This document shows positions 53,910 through 61,114 of a stretch of DNA of 64,000 bases, one piece after another; the first letter of the stretch is position 1, and each line of letters opens with the position of its first letter. The stretch covers positions 62,001-126,000 of the forward strand of contig CAMBMO010000001.1 in the NCBI GenBank assembly GCA_945868805.1, written 5' to 3'. The notes below the pieces were generated by a model, which saw only the letters and a program-made list of their open reading frames with translations, made no database searches and was not told where the DNA came from. The position numbers and the translations under genes are program-made. This DNA comes from Singulisphaera sp. GP187 (GTDB lineage Bacteria; Planctomycetota; Phycisphaerae; Phycisphaerales; SM1A02).

Positions 53910-55778
53910 TTATCGAGGCACGGTACCTGTTTTCGACACATTTGGATTGGAAACACTTGTGGAATTCGATGTCGCACCGAGCCGAGGGGTCAAACCTGGA
54001 ACAACTGCTCCCGCGATAGATGGCTGAGCCGCTGCGCTCTCTTCGTCTTCGATGAACTCTGGACGATCGATCCGCTCAGCTTCGGCGCCCGCCTTCGCGA
54101 TCGCGGCGAGAATTCGATCCTGTTCGATCTTGAAGTCGCCCGCAAGGAAGCCGTTCGAAGAGAGCGCGTAGAGAGCGCCAATGGTTTGGCTGTACGTCAT
54201 TCCCAGACCGGGCGCGGGGTTCGCAACGTCGGTGGTATGTCCAAGAAAACGTACGAGTTCGGGAGCCTTCACGCCAACCTTGTCAATGACTGGTGGAGCG
54301 TTGTCGCTCCGGCGATAAAACACGCTCAAAGTCCCTTCGTTTTCCTCCCCCTTGAAGAGGAGATCGCCATTCCACGCGCGCAAGCTCATCGGCGTTTTTA
54401 CTTTCATTTCGTCATCGAAAATGGTGATCGCCGGTTGCCCAGACTGGCTGACATAGACCATCGGATACTTGCTCGGCACGACATCAATCCTGAATTTTTT
54501 CCCGACCATCTGGCTCTGCACGATCAAGTCCTGACGGGCGCGCAAAACCTCGTAGGCGGCAAGTCGTACATCGATGTCGCTGTCGTCAAGAAGGGGTCGC
54601 AATCCCAGATCGATCGCGGGGTTGATCTTCATTCGCTCGAGCAGACGGATCGAAGGGACGCGAAGCTCGGTGCTCCCCGATTGAGCCATCGCGAGAAGAT
54701 GCGGAACGACGAGTGCATCATCCAATCTGGCACCTGCCTGCAGAGCAGCAAACCTCGGCTGCTCTTCGGGATAGTCGTAGAGCGGTCGAATCGCAATCGT
54801 GCTTTTCGGTCCGAGCGCCTGCCAGCGAAGGCTTGCAGAGTTCGCCGCGCCAGGGTTGTTCATGAGCGCTCGAGCGATCGAGGTCGCTGTCGCATCGATT
54901 GGACCGACATTGATCGATGTGTGGCGCAAGAGCTCGACAAACTCGTCCGAACGCGAATGCCATGATGGGGGTACTGCGACCATCACCAACTCCCCCGACA
55001 TTCCAGTTGCCGTATCACCCCGCTGAGTCGGTTCGCGCGGATAGTTCGAATTGATTGCGCTCGCGATCAACCGAGCGCGCGAGTGGCTCGGTGTTGCCAT
55101 GACGAGCTTGATCGGCAATTGCCGTGTTGACTTGCCTCCATTTAGGATTCGCCCGCTGAGCTGATTGACCATCGTCTGACTCCGATTCGCTTCGTCGGAG
55201 AATGGATTGATGATGATCGGACCCTTGGCCTGCGCCATCGACCGAACCTCTCGGCTTCCGACTAAGAGCACGCCCGGACGCAAATCGGTTGTCCACAAGG
55301 TCCCACCCTCGAGACTCGTCGTGCTTGTTCCAGGCGCTGCGTACACACGGACATCGAACTGAGTTCCGCGTGGCGCTCCCGCGGGGATGAGTGCTTCGAC
55401 GATGACGATCGCGGTGTTGTCCGAATTCAGCAACGCTTCAGGTTGGAGTTCCATTCCATTCCCCGACGACTCGGCGATTCCGTACCGCATCATTTCTCGA
55501 AGGATGTACTGACGAACCTCGGCGGGCGCAGTGCGGCTACCCGTTCCCTTGAGACCGGCAACAAATCCGTATCCACGAACAACAACGGGCTGGTACCCCA
55601 TGACGATCGTCTCGCTCGCAACAGTGCCGCGCATGATCGGATCGACATCCATGGGAATCGGCGGTCGTTCGGCACGCTTGGGCGCAAGAGTTGGATCTGC
55701 CTTCTCGATGTTTGAGCACGATGAGAGTGCGAGAGTGCAACTGACCATGAGGATGGTGGAGTACAAGGAAGGGCGCAT
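53910..55778 (-). CDS. FlgI (P-ring)-related lipoprotein with divergent C-terminal half
   Basis: Lipobox CTLALSSCSNI; VVVRGYGFVAGLKGTGSRTAPAEVRQYILREMMRYGI, NTAIVIVEALIPAGAPRGTQFDVRVYAAPGTSTTSLEGGTLWTTDL and VNQLSGRILNGG resemble FlgI; C-terminal half includes a HEAT-like segment (LDDSDIDVRLAAYEVLRARQDL). Confidence 0.8.
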   Translation of the reverse strand: MRPSLYSTILMVSCTLALSSCSNIEKADPTLAPKRAERPPIPMDVDPIMRGTVASETIVMGYQPVVVRGYGFVAGLKGTGSRTAPAEVRQYILREMMRYGIAESSGNGMELQPEALLNSDNTAIVIVEALIPAGAPRGTQFDVRVYAAPGTSTTSLEGGTLWTTDLRPGVLLVGSREVRSMAQAKGPIIINPFSDEANRSQTMVNQLSGRILNGGKSTRQLPIKLVMATPSHSRARLIASAINSNYPREPTQRGDTATGMSGELVMVAVPPSWHSRSDEFVELLRHTSINVGPIDATATSIARALMNNPGAANSASLRWQALGPKSTIAIRPLYDYPEEQPRFAALQAGARLDDALVVPHLLAMAQSGSTELRVPSIRLLERMKINPAIDLGLRPLLDDSDIDVRLAAYEVLRARQDLIVQSQMVGKKFRIDVVPSKYPMVYVSQSGQPAITIFDDEMKVKTPMSLRAWNGDLLFKGEENEGTLSVFYRRSDNAPPVIDKVGVKAPELVRFLGHTTDVANPAPGLGMTYSQTIGALYALSSNGFLAGDFKIEQDRILAAIAKAGAEAERIDRPEFIEDEESAAAQPSIAGAVVPGLTPRLGATSNSTSVSNPNVSKTGTVPR

Positions 55779-55987: not shown

Positions 55988-58900
55988 TCACACTTTGGGG
56001 AAGACGCGATCAAGCCACTCATCGAGCGGCCATGCGTATGGTCTGAACTTCTCTTGGGTACCTGATTCTTCGCTGTGCAGGATGACTCTTTGCGGTCCCA
56101 GTCTGCTCGCGATCGGAGAATCGATCAAGGTGCTCGAATCGGAAGCGCTGACTTGGAAGAGGAGTCGCCACTCAAATTCCCGGATCGCATTGCGATCGAA
56201 CGCACGTGCCAGATTCGTCGCGCCATCGCAAGTAATCATCACATGGATTCCGAGAGGCGGTCCCTCCCGCAGAAGCATCGCGAGCAGGCGGTCTGCAGTC
56301 GCAGGCGTGTCGGTCGTCGTTGAAAAACTGAAATCATCTTCATTGCGACGGAGCGAACGAAACCGATGGATTGCGTGCACGAGTACGAGGCACACAGGAG
56401 CCTGAGTGCGTTGGTCGGATTGCCGGCGCGAAAGCTCGGCGGTCGCGGACTCGAGGATCGTTTCTGCATCCCGAAGACCGCCCGATCCACCAGACAGGCT
56501 CAATCGCTTTTGAAGTCCAGCAAGCCGACCATGATTTTCGTCATCCGGCGGAGTTCCATCCAAAAGATAGAGCAAGCAAGCGCCGGGGAGAAACTGAGCG
56601 GCGAGGGAGACGAGCGCACCGGCCGAAATTCCCAACGCGGCATCCTCGCGTTGACCGACGAGCATGATGTTCGTTCCGGATTGCCTACGAAGTGCGACCG
56701 CTGTCGGATCCTTGATCGAAATTGCGTCACCGAACCAGAGGAGCGGTACCGTCGACTGTTCACGATGATCGCGATGATCCACATGATCCACATAATCCAC
56801 ATAATCCACATGATCCAGACGAGCTCGCGCACTCTGCAGGCGCTGATTCGAATCGAGGAGTGCCGGAGCGCTGCCTTCAAAGACGATCATCGGCGGGCGT
56901 TGAGAGGGCGGAGCGATCGCATTTCGAGCGCGAACTCGCGCGAGCATCCGATCTCTCTCGTCGTCGGGCAACCAGACGACTTGGAATGGATTGTTTCCTT
57001 CGACGAGTCCCCCCGCATCGTTGTAGATGGCCTCTCCAGGTCGAGAAAGGAGTCGTGCCGAAACATTGTCGTCCGAAAGAATGAGCTGAGAGTCCGCCTC
57101 GTTGCATTGCAATGCGATTCGAACCGCCATTTGCCCCATGGTTGCGCGGGCAATTGAGTAGGCGCCACCGAGAGTCTGCGAGCCAAGAATCACATGAATT
57201 CCGAATGCACGACCTTGTCGGACCAGTCGATCGAGCAGCAACGCGGACTCCTCTGAGACCTTGTCGTCTTCCGTGAAGAGTTCCTGAAATTCATCGACGA
57301 TCAGCAGAGTGCGCGGAATGCATTCGGTCGCTCCCAGGCGGCGGTATCCAGCGAGATCCTGAACAGATCGATCACGAAAGATCTCTCCACGTCGACGAAG
57401 TTCGACATCCAGTCCACGGAGAACCGAGAGACCGAATTCGCGGTCGCTCTCGACCGCCACGGCTCGCGCATGGGGGAGTCGATTCGTCGCGTAGGTGCGG
57501 AACTCGACGCCCTTCTTAAAATCGATCAGCCAGAGTTCGGCTTCATCTGGGCTGTACCGAAGTGCGAGATTCGTGATCAACGCGTGAAGGAGCGTTGACT
57601 TTCCTGAACCGGTCTTTCCCGCGATTAATGCGTGTTGACTTGTTCCCACACCGAGGGTGATGCTTTGAAGGCGAGTCGCTCCCGATCGCCCGAGCGGAAC
57701 CGAAATCGATTTGGATGTCGATTCCGACCACATCTCGCTGTCTAGCGGCGCAATGGCTGAAAACGGCACTTCAACGCGGCGAGAGTTCTTGGCCGTGAGG
57801 GCGATCCGGCGGAGCATCGCCATTGTCATCTCGTCGTCAGGCATCAGTCCCGCGGTGAATCCGAACCGGTCGAACAACTCCCACTCGACTGCAAATCTGT
57901 CGCCTTTCCAACTCAAGCACAACGAGCGACTCCGAATATCTGCGATATCGATTTCCGGCGGCATTGGTTGGCGGGTGTCCCGGAGGAGTACGGTGAAGAC
58001 CCCGCAACGAGCACCGCTGTTGACAATGCTCGCCAATTTTCGAGCCGCGATATCAGACAATCCAGTCGGGAAGTCCGCCATCACCAGAAATCGATAGGGC
58101 TCGGCGATCTCGCCTGCCTGAAGGTTGTATGCGTCGAGATCGGCGAACTCGTTTCGGAGAAACTTCTGGATGACCGTCTCCATGTGGTCGCAGAGGTCGG
58201 AAAGTCGATGTTCGATTTGTCGCGAATCGGTCCAGATCCGCTCGCCGATGAGAAACTCCGCTTCGTCGGCGAGGTGCATGAAGGCGGCAAACCCCTCACC
58301 CAGTCCAACCGGGTCGAGAATCGTGAATCGCGCCCGCCCGGGAGGAAGGGCGGTCAGGATGCGCAGAATCGTTTCGCGGAGTAAGGCGATCCCTTGCTCG
58401 CGACCTTCTTGCCCGGACTCGATGAGCAATGATGCTCGCGTTGGAAAGTTCAGTGTCAGTGGCAGGTGGATGAGCCTCGCCGAACCCGCAGGCCAGGCGA
58501 GATCGTGGTCGACTGGTAACGCCCCGGGTATCAAATTGAGCGAGACCGTGACCACGCCGATCTTCGCGGCGCCGATCGATGCGTCCTGTCCACGAAAATT
58601 CGACCAAGAAGGATCCGACCAAGGGGGGAAGAGTCGGCGATCCAAGTTCATCACGGTCTTGGTTTGCGCATAGATCTGGTCGCGTGCCAGCTTCCACTGC
58701 GTTCGAAGCACTTGATCGCGGGCTGCACCGACTGCCGCGATCTCCGCGACTCGACCCTCATGACGGACCTTTTCTTCGTCCATCGATCGGTCGTACTTTG
58801 CATGGGCTTCCTCGAGAGACCGTGCCGTGGTTTGTTCGATCTCGGCGATGGAACTCTCGAGTTGCGCGATTGAGTTTCGGCGAAGTCGCGTGGCGGTCTC

Positions 58901-59947
58901 CAGCATCTCCGCACGACGGCGGGTCACATCGATCTCGATGGCGCCAAGCTTTGGGTCCATGGCGTCTTGAGCTGACTGACGTTCGGCGCGATGCTGATTG
59001 CGAAATGTTTGCTCTTGATTCGCACGCCTCTTCGATGCAGAATCCACTGCGATCCGGCTCGCTTCTTGCGAGTGCGCGCGCGCAGATGCCAATGTCTCTG
59101 CGAAGATTCGCAGACGCGTTCCAGCCCATGTCCAGAGCGCGAATTGAAAAAGCACGGCAACGACCGCAACAGCGCCCATCGCTCGCGGATCCCGCGCGGT
59201 CGCAACTCCCGCGATCATGGAGATCGCCGAGAAAGCCACCACCGACAGAAGGAGTACAGCGCCGATATTCGCAGCCCAGTTTCGCAGGATGAGATCAAGA
59301 GGTCGCTTGCGGAGTTGCTCGAGCGCTTGGCGAACGAGCGCGCGCTGTTCAGCCAAATAGGCCTCGGTTTGGGTGATCGACCGAACCAGTTCCACCGCGA
59401 GCGAAAGAGTAGTGGTCGAGCGACCGACATGCGCTTTGCGAAGGAGCGCTTCTAACTGCACGGCAATTTCCTCGAAGTCGTTCTTGGACGATTCCATTGA
59501 TATGCGAACGAGATCAAACTCCTCGCGCGGGCGAGGCTCAAGCGCTTCGTAGACTGCATCAGCGGTCCATGCGGACTCTTCGGCGTGCCGTTCTATCCGT
59601 TCGATCTTCTCGTCACCGAATGATTGCAATGCGTGGAGCACCACCCGTTCTCGCTCTTGCAGATTCGCGATCTGCCTCTTCGAACGATTCTGCACCGATT
59701 CCATTCCGGTCACATGCGTTTGCGAGATCGACTCACAGAGGGCTTTTCTCTCCTCGCCGATCCTCTTGAGTTCAGCACGGTGGCGCAACTCCTCGGGTCC
59801 CTGTGAGTCCGAATAGAACTTGGCGAGGGACTGCTCTGATTCGAGGCGTCTCGATGGTTCGGTGAGAAGCAACTGCAGTATTCGTTGGCAGAATCCCGGC
59901 AGATCCTGTCCTCGCTGATTCACTTCATCGGTTGTCGACGGCGACAT
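55988..59947 (-). CDS. FtsK/SpoIIIE-type (EccC-like) ATPase with N-terminal coiled coil, two TM helices and tandem ATPase-like domains
   Basis: ALIAGKTGSGKSTLLHALITNLALRYSPDEAELWLIDFKKGVEF Walker A; TLLIVDEFQELF Walker B; GSQTLGG sensor; TM segment IGAVLLLSVVAFSAISMIAGV...AVVAVLFQFALWTWAG. Start 59947 (MSPSTTDEV) or 59989. Confidence 0.85.
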   Translation of the reverse strand: MSPSTTDEVNQRGQDLPGFCQRILQLLLTEPSRRLESEQSLAKFYSDSQGPEELRHRAELKRIGEERKALCESISQTHVTGMESVQNRSKRQIANLQERERVVLHALQSFGDEKIERIERHAEESAWTADAVYEALEPRPREEFDLVRISMESSKNDFEEIAVQLEALLRKAHVGRSTTTLSLAVELVRSITQTEAYLAEQRALVRQALEQLRKRPLDLILRNWAANIGAVLLLSVVAFSAISMIAGVATARDPRAMGAVAVVAVLFQFALWTWAGTRLRIFAETLASARAHSQEASRIAVDSASKRRANQEQTFRNQHRAERQSAQDAMDPKLGAIEIDVTRRRAEMLETATRLRRNSIAQLESSIAEIEQTTARSLEEAHAKYDRSMDEEKVRHEGRVAEIAAVGAARDQVLRTQWKLARDQIYAQTKTVMNLDRRLFPPWSDPSWSNFRGQDASIGAAKIGVVTVSLNLIPGALPVDHDLAWPAGSARLIHLPLTLNFPTRASLLIESGQEGREQGIALLRETILRILTALPPGRARFTILDPVGLGEGFAAFMHLADEAEFLIGERIWTDSRQIEHRLSDLCDHMETVIQKFLRNEFADLDAYNLQAGEIAEPYRFLVMADFPTGLSDIAARKLASIVNSGARCGVFTVLLRDTRQPMPPEIDIADIRSRSLCLSWKGDRFAVEWELFDRFGFTAGLMPDDEMTMAMLRRIALTAKNSRRVEVPFSAIAPLDSEMWSESTSKSISVPLGRSGATRLQSITLGVGTSQHALIAGKTGSGKSTLLHALITNLALRYSPDEAELWLIDFKKGVEFRTYATNRLPHARAVAVESDREFGLSVLRGLDVELRRRGEIFRDRSVQDLAGYRRLGATECIPRTLLIVDEFQELFTEDDKVSEESALLLDRLVRQGRAFGIHVILGSQTLGGAYSIARATMGQMAVRIALQCNEADSQLILSDDNVSARLLSRPGEAIYNDAGGLVEGNNPFQVVWLPDDERDRMLARVRARNAIAPPSQRPPMIVFEGSAPALLDSNQRLQSARARLDHVDYVDYVDHVDHRDHREQSTVPLLWFGDAISIKDPTAVALRRQSGTNIMLVGQREDAALGISAGALVSLAAQFLPGACLLYLLDGTPPDDENHGRLAGLQKRLSLSGGSGGLRDAETILESATAELSRRQSDQRTQAPVCLVLVHAIHRFRSLRRNEDDFSFSTTTDTPATADRLLAMLLREGPPLGIHVMITCDGATNLARAFDRNAIREFEWRLLFQVSASDSSTLIDSPIASRLGPQRVILHSEESGTQEKFRPYAWPLDEWLDRVFPKV
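56765..56818. repeat. In-frame 9-bp tandem repeat, six units, in the FtsK/EccC-like gene
   Basis: Units ATGATCGCG ATGATCCAC ATGATCCAC ATAATCCAC ATAATCCAC ATGATCCAG; encode (L)DHVDYVDYVDHVDHRDH on the minus strand. Confidence 0.95.
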
Positions 59948-60007
59948 GTTCGAATCATAAGTCAAACGGGGTCCGATGATCGCAGTCACCCTCTGCGAAT
60001 CGCGGGT

Positions 60008-60226
60008 CTATCCCGCGTCGCAATCTCTGCGTGCTCTCGCGATGGACTCCGCAAGCTGATCGAGCGCCAGAACGGCCATCCGAACCGCATTGTCGGCTGG
60101 TTCGACTGCCTCTCGTTCGATCGCATCGCTTGCGGCATCTCTCCACTCATGGCGGAGCGAAGCCCACTGTTCGTGCAAGACTCGGAGCGTGTCCTTGAGC
60201 TTCGCCTTGCTCGTCGCGTCACTCAT
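60008..60226 (-). CDS. Small helical protein with a WXG100-like W-R-D turn
   Basis: MSDATSKAKLKDTLRVLHEQWASLRHEWRDAASDAIEREAVEPADNAVRMAVLALDQLAESIARARRDCDAG; start 60226 overlaps the stop of the upstream gene. Confidence 0.65.
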   Translation of the reverse strand: MSDATSKAKLKDTLRVLHEQWASLRHEWRDAASDAIEREAVEPADNAVRMAVLALDQLAESIARARRDCDAG

Positions 60227-60845
60227 TGGGTCGTTCCTCTGGAACCGGATCAGTTCCGGCCCGACGCATGGAGTCCCCAGAATCTGTCCCGAGCGATCCG
60301 TCAGGGCGTCGCTCGCCGATCTCCAATCCTGGGTCGACCTTTCCAGGCGAGGTCGAGAGGTACCCATCGATCGACTGTGCCATGCGATTGAGCGAGGCGA
60401 CCGCTTCCGGAACGATTTGGTCGACATAGGTCGTCAGCGGACCAAGACCGGCTCGAAAGAGTGCGACAACCCTCTGATACTCGATCGCCCACCTTCGAAG
60501 ATTTCTGAGGCAGTCGTCCGCGTGTTGAACCGCCCGTTCGGATCGCAACACGGCCTTTCGTTCATCAACGGTCGAAGGTGGTCGACCGTCGGCAGTGGGT
60601 TGAATCTGCTTTCGAAAGAGGGCTGCGCGGTCGGCGTTGAGTTTTTCGGTGAGAATCCGACGCTGCCTTGTCCAATGGGCGGGGCCTTCGCCGTTCAACC
60701 ACATCCCGAATCGCTCAGCATCCGACTGGGCTTCTTCGATCGCCGTTGCAAAACTGCGCCCGGCTTTCGTCAGGGTTGCCTTCGCTGCCATCAACGTTCT
60801 CGTGTCTCGAAGATTTGCGCCCGAATCCATCGAGTATCCGTTCAC
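60219..60845 (-). CDS. Helical protein of unknown function in the WXG100/FtsK operon
   Basis: 208 aa, helix-rich, W/R-rich; ATGA overlap with the upstream WXG100-like gene (60842-60845) and overlap with the downstream 72-aa gene. Confidence 0.7.
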   Translation of the reverse strand: MNGYSMDSGANLRDTRTLMAAKATLTKAGRSFATAIEEAQSDAERFGMWLNGEGPAHWTRQRRILTEKLNADRAALFRKQIQPTADGRPPSTVDERKAVLRSERAVQHADDCLRNLRRWAIEYQRVVALFRAGLGPLTTYVDQIVPEAVASLNRMAQSIDGYLSTSPGKVDPGLEIGERRPDGSLGTDSGDSMRRAGTDPVPEERPNE

Positions 60846-61114
60846 CGTTGCTGCAGATACTCGTCGATTCGGTCGGCCTTACGGAGCAAGAACGGAATGT
60901 GCTCTTCGCTTGATTTCATCAATCGCTGGAGGACCTTGAGTGTTTGATCAAACTCTTCCGCGAATTTTTGCTGTTCCTGATCACGCCATGTCTGAGCAAG
61001 CGTGTTCATTCGACCTCCGATCGTCGAGATACCGGACTGAAGGTCCTGATTGAACTTGCGAAGATCGCCTGCAAACCGTCGGAGTTCATTTGGATCGACA
61101 ACTGCCCTGGCCAT
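60842..61114 (-). CDS. WXG100-family-like protein (ESX/type VII substrate type)
   Basis: 90 aa: MARAVVDPNELRRFAGDLRKFNQDLQSGISTIGGRMNTLAQTWRDQEQQKFAEEFDQTLKVLQRLMKSSEEHIPFLLRKADRIDEYLQQR; helix-(TWRD)-helix with length and pattern of WXG100 proteins. Confidence 0.82.
   Translation of the reverse strand: MARAVVDPNELRRFAGDLRKFNQDLQSGISTIGGRMNTLAQTWRDQEQQKFAEEFDQTLKVLQRLMKSSEEHIPFLLRKADRIDEYLQQR

What the first reader, a model, noticed from the sequence alone, without database searches (positions are those of the whole stretch)
55988..61114. Compact WXG100/FtsK operon: candidate minimal type VII-like secretion system
Four tightly coupled minus-strand genes: a 90-aa WXG100-like protein (61114-60842), a 208-aa helical unknown (60845-60219), a 72-aa helical protein (60226-60008), then a ~1320-aa membrane FtsK/EccC-like ATPase (59947-55988). 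WXG100 plus an FtsK/SpoIIIE ATPase is the hallmark pair of ESX/T7SS (established). In this locus I see no EccB, EccD, EccE, mycosin, EsaA/EssA/EssB or FHA domain. That suggests a stripped-down or lineage-specific version (inference).
Basis: partly seen in the sequence, partly recalled or inferred. Interest (0 to 1): 0.75.

Follow-up and report, generated by a model that had tools for sequence, protein, structure and literature searches.

The report
Toxin-free relative of type VII secretion
A freshwater planctomycete carries a very conserved four-gene set (two tiny hairpin proteins, one long hairpin protein and a motor ATPase) related to the engines bacteria use to export toxins, but with no toxin attached and without the known export-channel parts searched for, so it may be a weapon motor turned to another use.

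Summary
In detail: four coupled minus-strand genes encode a true WXG100 protein, a helical protein, a 72-aa helical protein and an EccC/EssC-like FtsK ATPase. The same order recurs in 40 named loci from Planctomycetota, Lentisphaerae and Verrucomicrobia bins. The 72-aa protein is a second WXG-like hairpin, and the 208-aa protein is one long helical hairpin. [quoted passage not shown] No EssB/YukC or YukD was found in the genome, and the WXG100 proteins lack the C-terminal YxxxD/E export motif. This class was already noticed (Zhang 2012; the 2024 CoCoNuT paper) as a mobile, stand-alone WXG100/EssC-like module. On plasmids the long-hairpin slot holds larger proteins: in Helicobacter a nuclease toxin with an immunity gene; in Rhodococcus an N-terminal domain that matches the hairpin. 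Here the hairpin carries no toxin. The operon is in about 83% of sampled family genomes, in a housekeeping neighbourhood, and its WXG100 protein is more conserved than the main sigma factor. Best reading: a domesticated, LXG-Lap-like three-hairpin complex worked by an EssC-type motor. Secretion itself is not shown. New variant of a known kind.

The parts
60842..61114 (-). WXG100 protein (90 aa, W-R-D motif at W43), first gene of the operon
   Evidence: Pfam PF06013 35.7 bits, over cut-off; profile's best solved match H. pylori HP0062, E 1.5e-10; 16 invariant columns across 26 relatives
60219..60830 (-). MID: 203-aa protein, one long helical hairpin (helices 10-76 and 88-160) plus a disordered tail; LXG/PPE-like position; no toxin domain
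   Evidence: AlphaFold2 mean pLDDT 85; no Pfam family; conserved start; hhalign to N-terminus of a Rhodococcus plasmid protein in the same slot 93%, E 3e-7
60008..60226 (-). SML: 72-aa second WXG-like hairpin (W28-R-D30)
   Evidence: TIGR03930 E 6e-4 (below cut-off); 16 of 27 relatives match PF06013 at E<0.1; hhalign to the WXG100 family 81.8%, E 1.1e-5; W21, W28, D30 invariant
55988..59947 (-). EccC/EssC-like FtsK ATPase, 1319 aa from ATG 59947 (1333 aa from GTG 59989)
   Evidence: Pfam FtsK_SpoIIIE 107.6 bits; best solved relative EccC 4nh0 by sequence (E 2e-35) and fold (Foldseek 7.6e-32)
59117..59278 (-). two predicted transmembrane helices (residues about 238-266 and 269-291, counted from GTG 59989) between coiled-coil-like stretches
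   Evidence: hydropathy; same pair in most relatives, absent in a subset of the Planctomycetota loci and in the Caballeronia, Rhodococcus and Deinococcus plasmid relatives
57770..58642 (-). first ATPase-like unit without Walker motifs (residues about 450-740)
   Evidence: single Walker A in the protein, at 791; conserved block DPVGLG...FMHLAD
57173..57712 (-). active FtsK unit: Walker A GKTGSGKS (791-798), Walker B D899-E900, catalytic residues invariant in 36 relatives
   Evidence: Pfam stretch 760-939; invariant columns of A5
55991..56737 (-). C-terminal third ATPase-like unit without Walker A (residues about 1085-1333)

Best explanation
A chromosomal, toxin-free version of the stand-alone WXG100/EssC-like ATPase module. 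SHOWN by sequence or model: a WXG100 protein, a second WXG-like protein, a long helical hairpin, and an EccC-type ATPase with one active unit. INFERRED: the three hairpin proteins pack side by side, as LXG-Lap1-Lap2 or PE-PPE do, and this complex docks on the ATPase, which is held at the inner membrane by its two helices. The middle FtsK unit forms a hexamer and, using ATP, pulls on or remodels the long hairpin and whatever hangs from its C-terminus. In plasmid relatives that slot holds a toxin; in this lineage it is a bare tail (or, in a few genera, an Imm33-like domain), so the module has been kept for a non-toxic, housekeeping-like job, most simply export or assembly of the hairpin complex itself. 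LEAST CERTAIN: whether anything crosses the membrane.
For: Families and folds. Fixed order in 40 loci. Present in 125-127 of 151 family genomes; WXG and MID co-occur in 38 of 39 phylum genomes, in 5 of them unlinked. Plasmid relatives with the same layout: Helicobacter WXG100, WHH nuclease protein, SMI1/KNR4 gene, 77 aa, FtsK; Caballeronia WXG100, 436 aa, 113 aa, 76 aa, FtsK. In a 61-genome sample the only Imm33-like domains found (4 of 4) are fused to MID. WXG100 protein 90-98% identical where RpoD is 83-94%. LXG-Lap1-Lap2 precedent: PMC9600955.
Against: No conserved C-terminal YxxxD/E or FxxxD signal in any of the three hairpins; no pore or EssB/YukD partner found; the TM pair is missing in a subset of the Planctomycetota loci; hhalign did not link MID to the Helicobacter or Caballeronia slot proteins, nor SML to their small proteins, so equivalence there rests on position and size; two loci have the ATPase without the other three nearby.
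Confidence: 0.5

Rival explanations
1. A true minimal secretion system: the ATPase's own two helices, or an unrecognised envelope protein such as the downstream FlgI-domain protein, form the channel, and WXG100/SML/MID are secreted substrates.
For: EccC-like motor plus WXG100 proteins; two TM helices; FlgI-domain protein gene 210 bp downstream and syntenic in many same-family loci.
Against: No C-terminal export motif; TM helices absent in some lineages; the FlgI-like gene lies 4-6 kb away in some relatives and was not seen next to the operon in other lineages.
Confidence: 0.25
2. Not export at all: a cytoplasm- or membrane-facing conflict or stress device in which the hairpins regulate an EssC-like motor acting on nucleic acid or on other proteins, as proposed around CoCoNuT/TerY-P systems.
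For: The same kind of ATPase plus two WXG100 proteins sits in CoCoNuT/TerY-P operons, and that paper argues for a mechanism different from EssC because TM helices are missing (PMC11090510); Caballeronia locus L123 shows this context.
Against: No TerY, PP2C or nuclease gene in the window's operon, and no such family common beside related loci apart from four kinase-domain neighbours; TM pair present here; no defence family other than FtsK/HerA-type matches over the ATPase domain.
Confidence: 0.2
3. A decaying remnant of a mobile polymorphic-toxin system that has lost its toxin.
For: The MID slot carries a toxin in a plasmid relative.
Against: Strong purifying selection with intact catalytic motifs in all sampled lineages, and presence in most of the family.
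Confidence: 0.03

Closest known systems
[quoted passage not shown] 2012, PMC3482391; Anantharaman 2012 as cited in PMC11090510)
   Same: Same ATPase type, WXG100 partner, and planctomycetes and verrucomicrobia named as carriers
   Different: Described in a table footnote as mobile; the fixed four-gene operon, the MID family, its vertical retention and the membrane helices are not described in the passages read
EssC-like ATPase + two WXG100 + coiled-coil-nuclease cassette of Type III-A CoCoNuTs (PMC11090510)
   Same: ATPase with N-terminal coiled coil and only the central unit active; two WXG100-like proteins; a coiled-coil protein beside them
   Different: Here: no nuclease on the helical protein, no DNA-mimic gene, no McrBC/TerY genes, and two TM helices in the ATPase
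H. pylori HP0062/HP0066 (3fx7; PMC3397514, PMC4978471)
   Same: W-R-D WXG100 hairpin; gene cluster with FtsK ATPase; diderm host
   Different: HP0062 is a crystallographic homodimer; its partner genes could not be compared here
T7SSb LXG-Lap1-Lap2 complexes (PMC9600955)
   Same: One long helical domain plus two small WXG100-like hairpins serving an EssC-type ATPase
   Different: Lap1 has FxxxD, the LXG protein carries a toxin, and the other T7SSb membrane components are present there

Membership tests
Canonical T7SS (ESX or T7SSb) | EccC/EssC-type FtsK ATPase | tested here: met
   Sequence and fold best matches EccC/EssC, though below the NCBIfam equivalog cut-offs
Canonical T7SS (ESX or T7SSb) | WXG100 substrate protein | tested here: met
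   PF06013 over cut-off
Canonical T7SS (ESX or T7SSb) | EssB/YukC and YukD/EccD, EccB | tested here: not met
   PF10140 and PF08817 absent, B. subtilis control rings; EccB absent but without a positive control; EsaA, EssA, EccE and mycosin not searched genome-wide
Canonical T7SS (ESX or T7SSb) | C-terminal YxxxD/E (or FxxxD) export motif | tested here: not met
   No conserved C-terminal motif in WXG100, SML or MID
Canonical T7SS (ESX or T7SSb) | Demonstrated secretion | not testable with these tools
   needs experiment
Stand-alone WXG100/EssC-like module | Three FtsK/HerA units with only the middle one active | tested here: met
   One Walker A, in the middle unit, in the PVC relatives scanned
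Stand-alone WXG100/EssC-like module | Long N-terminal coiled coil on the ATPase | tested here: inconclusive
   Charged, helix-like residues 20-230 and 300-440 around the TM pair, read by eye; no coiled-coil predictor was run
Stand-alone WXG100/EssC-like module | Two WXG100-type proteins and one coiled-coil/helical protein | tested here: met
Stand-alone WXG100/EssC-like module | Mobile, toxin-linked | tested here: not met
   Syntenic with housekeeping genes in the family, in 125-127 of 151 genomes, no toxin on MID
LXG-Lap1-Lap2 type complex | Physical complex of long and short hairpins | not testable with these tools
   No multimer prediction available
LXG-Lap1-Lap2 type complex | Sequence homology of MID to LXG (Pfam) | tested here: not met
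   No LXG match for any of 33 members
FtsK/SpoIIIE DNA translocase | Being the genome's cell-division FtsK | tested here: not met
   A separate, much stronger FtsK match exists elsewhere (C2:202137, 204.5 vs 96.4 bits)

The most novel reading that the evidence does not exclude
A polymorphic-toxin delivery motor was domesticated in PVC bacteria into a toxin-free, vertically inherited machine, with a WXG100 subunit constrained more tightly than the primary sigma factor, that moves or assembles its own three-hairpin complex at the inner membrane without the known T7SS channel parts.
Probability: 0.4. Interest if true: 0.72.

Novelty: new variant of a known kind. Interest (0 to 1): 0.52.

Why it matters
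It would be a natural test of how little is needed for an EssC-type motor to act on WXG100 hairpins, in a diderm that lacks the T7SS membrane partners searched for. It links a plasmid-borne toxin module to a conserved chromosomal one, and gives planctomycete biology a strongly constrained, unstudied, probably membrane-bound ATPase. It also corrects the view of these modules as only mobile.

Tried and rejected
Rejected: chance ORFs (conservation). Rejected: cell-division FtsK (separate gene). MID fold search against PDB gave only generic coiled coils, best E 0.1, and its PDB profile search gave nothing. MID homology to WXG100 or SML by hhalign: weak or none. Weak MID hits G401, G429 and G393:C125 looked like toxin fusions but, judged by eye, are an efflux-adaptor-like protein and an unrelated secreted protein. 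A possible MID-SML fusion in L088 was discarded because its ATPase is split, so a sequencing frameshift is likely. A neighbour survey of 117 ORFs from other lineages gave mostly unrelated families, top count 5. The relatives search could not be centred on the Verrucomicrobia locus.

Full report
CHECK OF THE OBSERVATION. The genes are between 8 bp overlapping and 60 bp apart. No promoter-like site above chance was found.

WHAT EACH PROTEIN IS. The 90-aa protein is a WXG100 protein by Pfam (35.7 bits, cut-off 27.3) and its 25 sampled relatives match the same family at E<0.1. Its motif is W-x-D, not W-x-G, in every relative. Its profile's closest solved structure is H. pylori HP0062 (E 1.5e-10), which also has W-R-D and clusters with an FtsK gene (PMC3397514). 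The 72-aa protein matches WXG100 weakly (E 6e-4; 16 of 27 family members at E<0.1), and its family aligns with the first by hhalign (81.8%, E 1e-5), with invariant W21, W28 and D30: a second, shorter WXG-like protein. The 203/208-aa protein (MID) has no Pfam family and is predicted as one long helical hairpin, residues 10-76 and 88-160, mostly pLDDT over 90, with a disordered tail. The ATPase has one canonical FtsK unit (760-939), a degenerate unit before and one after it, only one Walker A, and two TM helices at about 238-291. By sequence and by fold its nearest solved relatives are EccC and EssC. Which EccC unit the active one descends from is unsettled: it scores best against the first ATPase unit (68.6 vs 56.3 bits in 4nh0), whereas the CoCoNuT paper calls the active unit D2.

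HOW CONSERVED. Forty named loci hold all four genes in the same order; most other loci are cut by contig ends, and two (L063, L074) have the ATPase without the others nearby. Record titles name Planctomycetota, Lentisphaerae and Verrucomicrobiia. In the window's family, MID is in 125 and WXG100 in 127 of 151 genomes. In a phylum sample, 39 of 294 genomes have the WXG100 protein and 38 of these have MID, 33 adjacent and 5 (all one family) at distant places or other contigs, so the partners stay together even when unlinked. The MID search scored at most 10 candidates per genome, so absences are soft. Inside the family the operon sits beside a sigma-70 gene, SMC and a FlgI-domain protein in many loci, which points to vertical descent. 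Against six same-family loci the WXG100 protein is 90-98% identical while RpoD is 83-94%, SMC 64-77% and the ATPase 55-72%; dS is saturated, so only strong purifying selection can be claimed, not a ratio.

WHAT IS MISSING. The own genome (95.8% complete) has one WXG100 gene by Pfam, no YukC/EssB and no YukD; the EccB search was negative but lacked a positive control. EsaA, EssA, EccE and mycosin were not searched genome-wide. The hairpins lack a conserved C-terminal YxxxD/E.

RELATIVES THAT SPEAK TO FUNCTION. Plasmids carry diverged copies. Helicobacter sp. NHP19-012: WXG100, a protein with a C-terminal WHH nuclease domain (44.6 bits), an SMI1/KNR4 immunity-type gene, a 77-aa gene, then FtsK. 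Caballeronia: vWA, WXG100, 436 aa, 113 aa, 76 aa, FtsK, then CARF, vWA, PP2C and kinase genes. Rhodococcus: FtsK, 314 aa, 73 aa, WXG-like, whose 314-aa protein aligns at its N-terminus with MID (93%, E 3e-7). For Helicobacter and Caballeronia the equivalence rests on position and size, as hhalign saw nothing for MID or SML. In several genera related to the window's, MID carries a C-terminal Imm33-like domain, and in a 61-genome sample all four Imm33-like matches lie in MID genes. So the MID slot is a carrier of toxin- or immunity-type payloads elsewhere, and empty here.

MECHANISM. The LXG-Lap1-Lap2 work (PMC9600955) shows one long helical domain and two small WXG100-like hairpins forming a pre-secretion complex for an EssC-type motor. 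The anatomy here is the same in outline: one long hairpin, two short ones, one motor. I infer a complex of WXG100, SML and MID handled by the ATPase at the inner membrane. The step of crossing a membrane is not supported by any pore gene, and the TM pair is absent in a subset of the Planctomycetota loci, so remodelling or assembly is as likely as export.

NOVELTY. The class was recorded in a footnote of PMC3482391 and described in CoCoNuT operons in PMC11090510, and HP0062/HP0066 were called a minimal T7SS in PMC4978471. What I did not find described is the toxin-free, vertically kept four-gene PVC form, the MID family with its Imm33-like variants, and the membrane helices. Searches covered open-access papers only. 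Hence: new variant of a known kind.

Noticed in passing
53910-55778 (-): Lipoprotein-like protein with a FlgI (flagellar P-ring) domain (84.7 bits) and weak HEAT repeats, next to SMC rather than in a flagellar cluster; syntenic with the operon in many same-family loci.
   Followed up: partly
56774-56817: A 9-bp tandem repeat (4.9 copies) encodes a DHVDYVDYVDHVDH run in the linker between the active and third ATPase units.
   Followed up: no
L129:6904-7968, L131:1188-2225, L132:6820-7950, L107:1495-2634: MID proteins with a C-terminal Imm33-like domain (PF24719 over cut-off). In a 61-genome family sample the only Imm33-like domains found are fused to MID.
   Followed up: yes
L138/L139 (G247), L140/L141 (G172): In one other planctomycete family WXG100 and MID are at distant chromosomal places yet still co-occur; the ATPase was not seen beside either.
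   Followed up: partly
L102: Rearranged order MID, SML, WXG100 in one genus of the window's family.
   Followed up: no
L142:8042-11631 (G233): WXG100 followed by an ATPase without recognisable MID or SML; a 119-aa membrane-like ORF lies between.
   Followed up: no
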